Assembly: GCF_004917065.1 (NCBI RefSeq)
Contig: NZ_SSYA01000003.1
Coordinates: forward strand, 186,001 to 250,000
Source: Geomonas ferrireducens
Lineage (GTDB): Bacteria; Desulfobacterota; Desulfuromonadia; Geobacterales; Geobacteraceae
Direction: 5' to 3'
Length of the DNA: 64,000 bases
Part shown: in pieces, positions 3,595 through 6,082 of the stretch
Layout of the letters: each line of letters opens with the position of its first letter
How positions within the stretch are numbered: the first letter of the stretch is position 1
The notes under the pieces: generated by a model
The model's database searches: none
Told to the model about the DNA's origin: nothing
The model's input: the letters and a program-made list of their open reading frames with translations, nothing else
Translations under genes and position numbers: made by a program

Positions 3595-4080
3595 ATGAAA
3601 CTTGTAACACTGGCGGCGGCAGCGCTTCTGGCGGCCCTGGCCGCGGCGCCTGCATGCGGGTACGACGGCGTCGACATAGTGCAGCTGAAAAAGCAGGCCG
3701 CGGCGGGAAGTGCCGAGGCCCAATCCCGTCTTGGTGTGCTCTACGCGACCGGGGTGGGGGTCCCCCGGGACGTGCAGGAGGCGGCGCACTGGTATCGGAA
3801 ATCGGCGGATCAGGGGTTCGTCCTCGGGCAGTACAACCTCGCCATGCTTTACCTGCGGGGGGAGGGGCTTGCGGAAGACCCGGTCAAGGGGCGCGAGCTC
3901 CTTTTGAAGGCGGCCGAGCAGTGGCTTCCCGCGGCCCAGTACGATCTCGGCGTTGCGTGTCTCTACGGCGTAGGCGGGGAGAAAAACCGGGACGAGGCGG
4001 AGAAATGGCTGCGCCGCGCCTCGACCCAGGGGTACCGCGCGGCGAAGAAGAAGCTCGAGGAGCTTGCCGACGCGCGCTAG
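3595..4080 (+). CDS. exported Sel1-repeat (TPR-like) protein
   Basis: This 161-residue protein has an Ala/Leu-rich signal peptide (about residues 1-22, ending near PACGYDG) followed by about three Sel1-like repeats of 36 residues, recognised by AQSRLGVLYATGVGV, GQYNLAMLYLRGEG and AQYDLGVACLYGVG. Such repeats form short alpha-solenoids that bind other proteins. The start follows GGGAGG by 4 bases. No partner can be named from context; the next gene is hgcA, 171 bp away. Confidence 0.88.
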   Translation: MKLVTLAAAALLAALAAAPACGYDGVDIVQLKKQAAAGSAEAQSRLGVLYATGVGVPRDVQEAAHWYRKSADQGFVLGQYNLAMLYLRGEGLAEDPVKGRELLLKAAEQWLPAAQYDLGVACLYGVGGEKNRDEAEKWLRRASTQGYRAAKKKLEELADAR

Positions 4081-4165: not shown

Positions 4166-4251
4166 AGTGGCGGCATGAAGAGCGGGAGCGCGCATGACTG
4201 TTCGCCCCTGCAGGTAGCGCAGCCTGAGATTAGGGACACAAGGGTGTGCAT

Positions 4252-5412
4252 ATGAAGACGCGACAGTTCAAGAAGATCGAGTTGGCTGCTCCCAAGCGGG
4301 AAAAGGTCTGCACCCCTGCCCAGGACCCCGACGCCCCCCCTTGCTGAGGGCCGCGTACCTCCGCCGGTGGCGGAGAGATCACGGAAAAGGTGCCCGGGTT
4401 CGTGCGCTGGCTCAAGACTGGAGGAGGGCGTGTCCCGCAGGTCACCTCCCGCCTCACCCCGGCCGACCATCTGGGTGCCTGCAAGGCCCGCTGGGGCATC
4501 AACAGGATGCACTTCCTCGTTCCCCCCGGCCTCTACGCGGTGGGCGAGCCCGACGCACAGGCGCCGGTCGTGGTGACGGCGAACTACAAGATGACCTACG
4601 ACATCGTCCGGCGTACTCTTTCCGGGCGCAGCGTCTGGCTCCTCGTGCTGGAGACCTACGGGATCAACGTCTGGTGCGCGGCCGGTAAGGGGACCTTCGG
4701 CACCGGCGAACTGGTGCGGCGTATCGAGGCGGCCAGGCTAAGCGAGGTGGTCGGGCACCGGCGCCTCATCCTTCCCATCATGGGGGCGGCCGGCGTCTCG
4801 GCGCATCGGGTGAAAAAACAGAGCGGTTTCGAGGTGGCCTACGCCTGCGCCTACGCCGCCGACCTCCCCGAGTACCTGGACAACGGCCAGGTCACCACGC
4901 CTCGCATGCGCGAGCTCTCCTTCAACTGGTACGACCGACTGGTCCTGATACCGGTGGAACTGGTTCTCGTGGTGAAGTCGATCGCCCCGGTTGCGGCCCT
5001 CGTCTTCCTCGCCGGCTGGCTCCTCTTCGGGAGTGCCGCCGCAACCGCCGCGACCCTTGCCTTCCTGGGGGCGGTCTTCACCGGGGTGGCGGTCGGGCCG
5101 GCACTCCTTCCCCTGCTTCCCTCGCGCAGCTTCGCCGTCAAGGGGGCCTTTGCCGGGCTTGTCTACTGCGCCCTGCTCCACCTTTTTTGCGGGGGGAACG
5201 GGTGGGGGGTGACGACGACGCTGGCCGCTTTCCTCGCCCTGCCTGCGGTCTCCTCCTTCTACACCTTGAACTTCACCGGCTGCACCACCTACACCTCGAA
5301 ATCCGGGGTGAAAAAGGAGATGCGCCTGGGGCTTCCGGTCATGGCGGGGGCGCTTTGCGCCGCGCTCTTGGTCCTTATCGCCGGCCGGGTGCTCACCTGG
5401 GGGATGTCATGA
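4252..5412 (+). CDS. hgcA: HgcA, corrinoid membrane protein of mercury methylation; probable selenocysteine at codon 32
   Basis: HgcA transfers a methyl group from its corrinoid cofactor to Hg(II). The signature cap-helix motif INVWCAAGKGTFGTGEL is present; its Cys is the expected lower Co ligand. It is followed by a C-terminal membrane domain of about five hydrophobic helices. An ATG at 4252 with AAGGGTG 7 bases upstream opens a frame continuous with the hgcA body except for one TGA (4345-4347). Read through, the N-terminus has ...DPDAPPC-U-GPRTSAGGG..., giving 386 residues. A 7-bp hairpin with loop GGU starts 11 nt after the TGA, as a bacterial SECIS should. The conservative alternative is a GTG start at 4390 (340 residues), which has only a distant GGAG 14 bases upstream. 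HgcA identity is nearly certain; the selenocysteine is an inference. Confidence 0.93.
4345..4375 (+). promoter_or_regulatory. in-frame UGA plus SECIS-like hairpin in hgcA
   Basis: The UGA at 4345-4347 is followed by a perfect 7-bp stem (4359-4365 with 4369-4375) closing a GGU loop at 4366-4368, 18 nt after the UGA. A short spacer, a small apical loop and G in its first positions are the known marks of bacterial SECIS elements recognised by SelB. Confidence 0.65.
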
Positions 5413-5702
5413 AAGGATTCAGGTACCTGGCATCGGTGGTGACGCTCGAACTGAGCCCTCCGCTTTGCGTCGGCTGCGGCAGGTGCGTCGAGGTTTGTCC
5501 GCACCAGGTGTTCCGCATCGAGGAGAAAAAGGCGGCCCTTGCCGACCGCGACGCCTGCATGGAGTGCGGCGCCTGCGCCCTCAATTGCCCGACGTCCGCC
5601 ATCAAGGTGGACGCAGGGGTCGGGTGCGCGAGCGGCCTCATCAACGAGTGGCTGAGGGAGAAGAAGCTCCCCGGCTTGAAGGGGTCGGGTTGCTGCGAGT
5701 AG
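5409..5702 (+). CDS. hgcB: HgcB, 2[4Fe-4S] ferredoxin partner of HgcA
   Basis: This 97-residue ferredoxin overlaps the hgcA stop (ATGA), so the two are translationally coupled. It has two cluster motifs, CVGCGRCVEVCP and CMECGACALNCP; the second carries the ECGAC variant typical of HgcB. The extra C-terminal Cys pair (GCC, two residues from the end) matches the Cys tail thought to handle Hg(II). HgcB is the electron donor that reduces the HgcA corrinoid to Co(I) and may pass mercury to it. Length and order match known hgcAB pairs. Confidence 0.95.
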   Translation: MKGFRYLASVVTLELSPPLCVGCGRCVEVCPHQVFRIEEKKAALADRDACMECGACALNCPTSAIKVDAGVGCASGLINEWLREKKLPGLKGSGCCE

Positions 5703-5785: not shown

Positions 5786-6082
5786 ATGGAAAAGCAGATG
5801 GTCAAGATCACTTCCTGCAACGTTACGCAGTGCGCCTACAACAAACACAATTCCTGCCACACGCTCGCCATCACCGTTGGCGGTCCCGGTGACACCTGCC
5901 CCGAGTGCGATACCTTCATGCAGGGCAGCCAGAAAGGGGGCATCATCGATGTCCAGGGGGGCATCGGGGCCTGCAAGGTGGAGACCTGCAGTTACAACCA
6001 GTCCCTCGAATGCACCGCCTCCGCTGTTGATGTCGGCATGCACGAATCGCATCCCGACTGCTTTACCTACAAACCTAAGTAA
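5786..6082 (+). CDS. DUF1540 Cys-rich protein (two repeats)
   Basis: The 98 residues hold two DUF1540 repeats, each with a leading Cys, C-x-YN and a later Cys: CNVTQCAYN...C...TCPEC (about 11-42) and CKVETCSYN...C...DC (about 63-92). With nine Cys in all it is expected to bind a metal, probably Zn or Fe. The function of the family is not known. The start follows AAAGGAG by 7 bases. Its position directly after hgcAB may be chance, since it has its own promoter candidate. Confidence 0.85.
   Translation: MEKQMVKITSCNVTQCAYNKHNSCHTLAITVGGPGDTCPECDTFMQGSQKGGIIDVQGGIGACKVETCSYNQSLECTASAVDVGMHESHPDCFTYKPK

What the first reader, a model, noticed from the sequence alone, without database searches (positions are those of the whole stretch)
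4252..4390. HgcA may be a selenoprotein: in-frame UGA with SECIS-like hairpin
An ATG at 4252 with a good ribosome-binding site opens a frame that runs into hgcA except for one UGA at 4345-4347, placed after Cys (APPC-UGA-G). Directly downstream is a 7-bp stem closed by GGU, 18 nt from the UGA, within the known range of bacterial SECIS elements. The best start otherwise available (GTG 4390) has only a distant ribosome site. A Cys-Sec pair next to a mercury-binding enzyme would be chemically striking: a selenolate would bind Hg(II) much more tightly than a thiol.
Basis: partly seen in the sequence, partly recalled or inferred. Interest (0 to 1): 0.95.

Follow-up and report, generated by a model that had tools for sequence, protein, structure and literature searches.

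The report
Selenocysteine-containing mercury-methylating enzyme HgcA
The gene for HgcA, an enzyme that makes methylmercury, appears to read an internal stop codon as selenocysteine in this bacterium and many relatives; this was already predicted for the HgcA family, and the sequence evidence here strongly supports it.

Summary
ATG 4252 opens a 386-residue frame into hgcA, broken only by UGA 4345-4347 (PPC-UGA-GP). Eighteen nucleotides further on is a 7-bp stem with a GGU loop. Of 149 hgcA loci analysed in the class, 101 carry UGA in the tail, 14 have CCGP, and 34 have other tails with Cys-Cys pairs. The hairpin register is kept in 88 of 88 distinct C-UGA-GP sequences but in 2 of 14 CCGP sequences, far above a synonymous-codon null. 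The genome has selA, selB, selD and tRNA-Sec. No downstream start is conserved. The Sec lies in a tail predicted disordered, just before the corrinoid domain. HgcB is the Cys form. The family claim is already in print: a 2026 review lists HgcA (motif CU), citing Haft & Gwadz 2023, which I could not read. Added here: CCGP forms have a second Cys pair where Sec forms have one Cys (suggestive only), and some relatives have Sec-Cys order or Sec alone. Against: two 99%-complete genomes keep the UGA without detected selA, selB or tRNA-Sec. Sec insertion and mercury binding are untested.

The parts
4252..5412 (+). hgcA with in-frame Sec codon, 386 residues (stop 5410-5412, overlapping the hgcB start)
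   Evidence: NCBIfam NF040863 HgcA_corrinoid 434.7 bits against cut-off 275
4240..4245 (+). Shine-Dalgarno-like AAGGGT upstream of ATG 4252
   Evidence: read; similar G-rich stretches before the ATG in the nearest relatives printed
4309..4311 (+). Cys20 codon, the single upstream tail Cys
   Evidence: single Cys upstream in 77 of 90 C-UGA-GP sequences (Cys-Cys in 2, none in 11); Cys-Cys in 13 of 14 CCGP sequences
4342..4344 (+). Cys31 codon, partner of Sec32
   Evidence: invariant in alignment A2, whose rows were chosen for C-UGA-GP
4345..4347 (+). UGA, selenocysteine codon (Sec32)
4359..4375 (+). SECIS stem-loop: 7-bp stem 4359-4365/4369-4375, apical loop GGU 4366-4368
   Evidence: bSECIS rule in PMC13188914
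4675..4677 (+). Cys142 in NVWCAAGKGTF (its role as the corrinoid-site motif is recalled)
   Evidence: invariant in alignment A2
5409..5702 (+). hgcB, Cys form (GVGC), with a CC pair near the C-terminus
   Evidence: NF040864 128.2 bits against cut-off 99; sequence

Best explanation
hgcA here is a true selenoprotein gene. Translation starts at ATG 4252. SelB with Sec-tRNA-Sec, recruited by the stem-loop 4359-4375, inserts selenocysteine at UGA 4345-4347, and the ribosome goes on into the corrinoid and membrane domains. The gene architecture and its conservation are shown; the insertion itself is inferred from them. The Cys31-Sec32 pair sits in a flexible N-terminal arm, about ten residues before the confidently modelled part. 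Its most likely job (inferred, about 0.6 given that Sec is inserted) is to capture Hg(II) as a selenolate/thiolate ligand and hand it to the methyl-corrinoid site and to HgcB's cysteines, as Cys forms may do with vicinal Cys pairs. The confidence below is for Sec insertion, not for the mercury role.
For: UGA in the N-terminal tail: 17 of 17 named-contig loci with readable upstream DNA (18 found; L020 lacks the region); 101 of 149 loci in the class (some of these are the same genomes as the 17); 38 of 99 loci outside it, my selection from 46 with a nearby TGA. Cys in its place in 14 CCGP loci, of which L044 may not be aligned at the same site. Stem: 95.3% of cells paired; 29 cells with both sides changed against 7.0 in shuffles; covariation score 0.240 against 0.154, 0 of 500 shuffles as high. 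At least 6 of 7 pairs in 88 of 88 Sec against 2 of 14 CCGP sequences; mean 6.67 against a synonymous null of 4.30 (sd 0.12, maximum of 400 draws 4.64); for CCGP 3.57 against 3.42. Coding signature: differences by codon position 132/77/239 before the UGA and 10/21/69 between UGA and the GTG 4390 place, over 33 overlapping pairs. Machinery: tRNA-Sec 74.9 bits, selA 609.9, selB 395.9, selD 359.2 with one in-frame TGA of its own. pLDDT 44-59 over residues 1-40 and 92 at 41-50.
Against: No protein or selenium data. G216 and G227 (99% complete) carry UGA-hgcA but no selA match, and no selB or tRNA-Sec over the cut-off; G216 also has no selD over the cut-off. G152 (UGA, 78% complete) likewise shows none of selA, selB, tRNA-Sec. 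Of five relatives of G216 and G227 that have the genes, selA and selB are neighbours in three (G230, G233, G234), within 5 kb in G222, and on different contigs in G212, so one gap could remove both in some lineages; not shown. selA is missing in 7 of 100 UGA genomes and 7 of 48 Cys genomes (my count), a weak contrast. In one search the number of pairs with a change on both sides (3) is not above shuffles (160 of 500 reach it) nor above slides +2 and +3 (4 and 5). Folding energy beats synonymous shuffles at p 0.05 in only 11 of 90. Against the nearest relative L153, the 31 codons before the UGA show 6 non-synonymous and 4 synonymous codon changes, so that part of the tail is not strongly constrained. 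Outside the class 13 of 61 non-UGA tails show no Cys (at least L192 and L220 of these have no readable tail), so the arm is not needed in every HgcA.
Confidence: 0.95

Rival explanations
1. The UGA is an ordinary stop of a short upstream ORF, and hgcA starts downstream (GTG 4390 or later) by its own site or by re-initiation.
For: A standard-code ORF list gives hgcA from GTG 4390. The frame after the UGA still encodes the whole NF040863 profile. G216, G227 and G152 keep the UGA without detected selA, selB or tRNA-Sec.
Against: The peptide across and after the UGA (PPC-U-GPxTSAGGGxI) is conserved across several families of the class. The first start-type codon after the UGA is scattered, and the first ATG lies 54 codons on, inside the conserved domain, in 64 of 90. 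The site is Cys in CCGP relatives, which mostly lack the hairpin.
Confidence: 0.03
2. The hairpin is conserved only because the peptide TSAGGG is conserved and GC-rich codons pair by chance.
For: The peptide does favour pairing: the synonymous null already gives 4.30 of 7 pairs, and total folding energy is mostly not below synonymous shuffles.
Against: Observed 6.67 pairs is about 20 sd above that null. Other peptides such as TPAVSG and TPTGGG keep the stem with changed bases. CCGP relatives sit at the null. Most of the C-UGA-[PA]P loci have a different sequence but a stem at a like distance.
Confidence: 0.02
3. Sec is inserted, but the Cys-Sec pair is a redox element (helping cobalt reduction, or forming a disulfide or selenylsulfide with HgcB) and not a mercury ligand. 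This competes with the job given in the best explanation, not with Sec insertion.
For: Many known selenoproteins use Sec in redox active sites (recalled; the abstract of PMC13188914 in the listing speaks of antioxidant defence and active sites). HgcB carries its own CC pair near the C-terminus.
Against: The tail is predicted disordered and has no CxxU motif. The 34 'other' Cys tails all hold at least one and mostly three or more CC pairs, which looks like metal-thiolate sites. None of this is decisive.
Confidence: 0.3

Closest known systems
Selenoprotein forms of HgcA (NCBIfam NF040863; motif CU; Haft & Gwadz 2023 as cited in PMC13188914)
   Same: Same family, one Sec in a Cys-Sec pair. The review's table lists motif CU and one Sec; [quoted passage not shown]
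   Different: Nothing that I can show. I could not read Haft & Gwadz 2023, so whether this genus is among their examples is unknown to me.
Selenoprotein form of HgcB (NF040864; motif GVGU; listed in the same review)
   Same: Partner protein in the same operon; also reported with Sec.
   Different: HgcB here is GVGC. In the class set, 139 of 145 HgcB matches are GVGC, 5 have Cys in a variant motif and 1 is cut at a contig end. Outside, 92 of 95 are GVGC, 2 have Cys in a variant and 1 is masked. No UGA was seen there.
Corrinoid/iron-sulfur protein gamma subunit of CO dehydrogenase/acetyl-CoA synthase (PDB 2h9a, 4c1n)
   Same: Corrinoid-binding domain: residues 70-197 match 2h9a_A, E 8.1e-9.
   Different: HgcA adds helices after residue 226 that form the known membrane domain (PMC11588087 passage) and, here, the Sec tail.

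Membership tests
HgcA (NF040863) | Full-length profile match above the curated cut-off | tested here: met
   434.7 bits, cut-off 275, profile 1-324 of 325
HgcA (NF040863) | Conserved Cys motif NVWCAAGKG and C-terminal membrane helices | tested here: met
   motif invariant in A2 except the nearly invariant last G; long helices 226-385 predicted; that they lie in the membrane is inferred
HgcA (NF040863) | hgcB directly downstream | tested here: met
   hgcB 5409-5702, NF040864 128.2 bits, cut-off 99
HgcA (NF040863) | Methylates mercury | not testable with these tools
   needs an assay
Bacterial selenoprotein gene | In-frame UGA with Sec or Cys at the same place in homologues | tested here: met
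   101 UGA, 14 CCGP (L044 perhaps not at the same site), 34 other tails among 149 loci
Bacterial selenoprotein gene | bSECIS: small apical loop with G in its first two positions, 16-37 nt after UGA | tested here: met
   GGU loop 18 nt after UGA; rule in PMC13188914; conserved
Bacterial selenoprotein gene | selA, selB, selD and tRNA-Sec in the genome | tested here: met
Bacterial selenoprotein gene | Selenium found in the protein | not testable with these tools
   needs 75Se labelling or mass spectrometry
Selenoprotein HgcB (GVGU) | UGA in the GVGU motif of HgcB | tested here: not met
   GVGC in the window's hgcB

The most novel reading that the evidence does not exclude
The Sec tail is a selenolate mercury-capture arm, and selenium economises on thiols: one Cys-Sec pair with one upstream Cys (C...CU) does the work of two or more vicinal Cys pairs (CC...CC). 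Where the Sec/Cys state changed on the tree (at least 5, by parsimony 9 times; direction not resolved), the second vicinal pair came or went with it. Mercury-methylating capacity would then depend on selenium supply.
Probability: 0.3. Interest if true: 0.75.

Novelty: already known. Interest (0 to 1): 0.42.

Why it matters
HgcA makes methylmercury, the neurotoxic form that builds up in food webs. If many HgcA proteins carry a selenocysteine in their N-terminal tail, a standard-code gene call loses that tail (here residues 1-46 at least), constructs made from such calls lack it, and methylation by these bacteria may depend on selenium. Natural Sec and Cys forms in close relatives make the role of the tail directly testable.

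Tried and rejected
Minimum-free-energy comparison with synonymous shuffles: too blunt. It is below shuffles at p 0.05 in 11 of 90 C-UGA-GP, 4 of 11 C-UGA-[PA]P and 0 of 14 CCGP, because GC-rich codons fold anyway. A register-specific pair count replaced it. Both are reported.

selA as a discriminator between UGA and Cys genomes: weak. Counted by eye (any match at E 0.001 counts as present) against the forms, selA is missing in 7 of 100 UGA genomes (G107, G152, G193, G207, G209, G216, G227) and 7 of 48 Cys genomes (G010, G015, G046, G132, G224, G240, G248). Of these 14, selB is over the cut-off in 3 (G193, G207, G209) and tRNA-Sec in 7 (G193, G207, G046, G107, G015, and barely G010 and G132). 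None of the three genes was detected in G224, G240, G248 (Cys forms) and in G216, G227, G152 (UGA forms; G152 is 78% complete). For the UGA ones I can only suggest an assembly gap, mis-binning or recent loss. The tRNA search scored only 150 candidates per genome.

Extra vicinal Cys pairs in Cys forms: very different in bulk (Mann-Whitney p 7e-25), but the tree-aware test has 5 independent pairs on supported branches and is not significant (0.0 the same way, 2.6 the other way, 2.4 no difference; median p 0.25). Some CC counts in UGA forms come from DNA that may lie before the true start. Kept as suggestive only.

Sec in HgcB: looked for and not found. Rfam scan of the window at gathering thresholds gave three tRNAs and nothing else. 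A full-text search for HgcA, HgcB, vicinal and N-terminal together returned no paper.

Rows dropped: of the rows listed (150 by my count), G226 (no upstream DNA) was not fetched and G000 was read from the window; matches not listed there were not examined. G172 has two copies, both counted in the 149. From I fetched 99 loci from 97 genomes; over-cut-off partial hits (G404, G418, G304, G293, G503, G353) and sub-cut-off hits were not fetched. Of 46 outside-class loci with a TGA within 45 residues I dropped 8 (L182, L233, L234, L243, L269, L273, L277, L278), whose best stem was at most 4 pairs and whose context looked like an ordinary upstream stop; L250, also with a best stem of 4, was kept for its C-UGA-PPKK context. 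In one search a stem of at least 6 pairs was found in 26 of 46 TGA rows, 0 of 9 TAA/TAG rows and 26.7% of 2673 control windows.

Full report
What is there. The window holds an hgcAB operon; hgcA ends at UGA 5410-5412, overlapping the hgcB ATG at 5409. By standard code the hgcA ORF starts at GTG 4390, but the same frame is open upstream to ATG 4252 except for UGA 4345-4347. Read with UGA as Sec, the protein has 386 residues, with Sec at 32 in APPC-U-GPRTSAGGGEI. It matches NF040863 at 434.7 bits (cut-off 275), and hgcB matches NF040864 at 128.2 bits (cut-off 99). The nearest named relatives are Geomonas edaphica and G. oryzae, 94% identical in the best segment. The stem-loop is 4359-4365/4369-4375 with loop GGU, 18 nt after the UGA. 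A 2026 review gives the bacterial rule as a G in one of the first two loop positions and 16-37 nt (PMC13188914, passages); this one fits.

The genome can make selenoproteins. It has tRNA-Sec (74.9 bits), selA (609.9), selB (395.9) and selD (359.2); selD itself contains one in-frame TGA.

Conservation of the UGA. In named public contigs, 17 of 17 homologues with readable upstream DNA have PPC-UGA-GP; 18 loci were found, one without the region. In the class, 162 of 277 genomes have an hgcA match, 156 over the cut-off. I analysed 149 loci, 148 fetched plus the window: 90 C-UGA-GP, 11 C-UGA-[PA]P, 14 CCGP, and 34 other tails, all with at least one Cys-Cys pair. One of the CCGP loci, L044, may not be aligned at the same site. 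Outside the class 38 of 99 fetched loci have a tail UGA that I judge to be Sec: by my reading, 29 are Cys-Sec, 4 are Sec-Cys and 5 have no Cys directly beside it.

The hairpin is under selection as RNA. On 88 distinct sequences 95.3% of cells pair and 29 cells have both sides changed (7.0 in shuffles); the covariation score is 0.240 against 0.154, reached by 0 of 500 shuffles. With partners slid by 1-3 columns 44-75% of cells pair and the score is 0.06-0.16. The count of pairs with a change on both sides (3) is, however, not above shuffles or all slides. RNAalifold finds six of the seven pairs unprompted. With each protein held fixed and synonymous codons drawn by the gene's own usage, the mean is 4.30 of 7 pairs (sd 0.12); observed is 6.67, and 88 of 88 have at least 6. 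The 14 CCGP sequences show 3.57 against a null of 3.42, with 2 at 6 or more. So the structure goes with the UGA. Total folding energy is a poor test (window p 0.08; 11 of 90 at p 0.05).

The upstream part is coding. In 33 overlapping pairs of related sequences, differences by codon position are 132/77/239 before the UGA and 10/21/69 between UGA and the GTG 4390 place. Window against its two nearest relatives, the stretch before ATG 4252 shows no third-position excess (13/8/10 and 8/10/6). Within ATG-UGA the counts are small: 4/3/5 against L153 (6 non-synonymous, 4 synonymous codons) and 1/0/4 against L166 (1 and 4). The first start-type codon after the UGA is scattered: at codon 15 (the GTG 4390 place) in 20 of 90, at codon 29 in 22 of 90. 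The first ATG is 54 codons on in 64 of 90, inside the conserved domain.

Evolution. On a FastTree tree of 149 HgcA bodies the UGA/Cys state changes at least 9 times, 5 forced by supported branches; direction is not resolved. C-UGA-GP forms have a single Cys upstream of the pair in 77 of 90, Cys-Cys in 2 and none in 11; the nearest is 13 residues away in 46 of the 79 that have one. CCGP forms have Cys-Cys there in 13 of 14. Tree-aware pairing is too thin to be significant.

Structure and mechanism. The model is confident overall (mean pLDDT 84.8), but residues 1-40 are at 44-59 and residues 41-50 at 92. Sec32 is thus in an arm predicted flexible, close to the folded part. That the arm captures Hg(II) is my inference from selenolate chemistry (general knowledge), from the vicinal-thiol arrays of Cys forms, and from the reported importance of HgcB cysteines C73, C94 and C95 (PMC11588087, passages). 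A redox role is not excluded.

Contrary results. G216 and G227, rated 99% complete, keep UGA and hairpin but show no selA, and no selB or tRNA-Sec over the cut-off; G216 also has no selD over the cut-off; G152 (78% complete) likewise lacks the first three. In five relatives of the same genus group as G216 and G227, selA and selB are neighbours in G230, G233 and G234, within 5 kb in G222 and on different contigs in G212, so one gap could remove both only in some. Outside the class 13 of 61 non-UGA tails show no Cys, at least two of them for want of readable tail. HgcB carries no Sec in the 145 and 95 matches seen, although a Sec form is listed in the review.

Literature. The review PMC13188914 (passages seen) lists mercury methylation corrinoid protein HgcA, NF040863, motif CU, citing its references 61 and 63; 63 is Haft & Gwadz 2023. 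[quoted passage not shown] Haft & Gwadz itself is not held. Passages of PMC2398784 and PMC5029168 under the terms tried did not mention this protein. Full-text searches for HgcA with selenocysteine and with selenoprotein gave 3 and 4 papers; of these I opened PMC13188914 and PMC11588087, the others looked unrelated from their listing. Searches gave further listings, from which nothing else was opened.

Verdict. The selenoprotein status of HgcA is already known as a prediction; this work strengthens it by comparative RNA evidence and adds the Sec-for-Cys-pair pattern as a testable lead.

Noticed in passing
L166 and L167 (genome G172); L004 and L014 (Geomonas oryzae S43): Two hgcA copies on different contigs of one genome, identical where compared.
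   Followed up: no
G216 (L090) and G227 (L096): UGA-hgcA with the hairpin in 99%-complete genomes without detected selA, selB or tRNA-Sec; G227's selD lies on the same contig as its hgcA.
   Followed up: partly
L213, L217, L223, L247: Outside the class some HgcA tails have the order Sec-Cys (UGA then a Cys codon) instead of Cys-Sec.
   Followed up: partly
L039, L069, L070, L078, L101 (C-UGA-PPKAPPG group): Tails that combine a Cys-Sec pair with one or more Cys-Cys pairs, with a different SECIS-like stem.
   Followed up: partly
G000:C1:1927695-1928612: selD of the window's own genome carries one in-frame TGA, so it is probably a selenoprotein itself.
   Followed up: no
window 5786-6082: Small Cys-rich protein with two DUF1540 stretches just downstream of hgcAB (PF07561).
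   Followed up: no
window 3595-4080: Sel1-repeat protein upstream of hgcA (PF08238); the name is unrelated to selenium (recalled).
   Followed up: no
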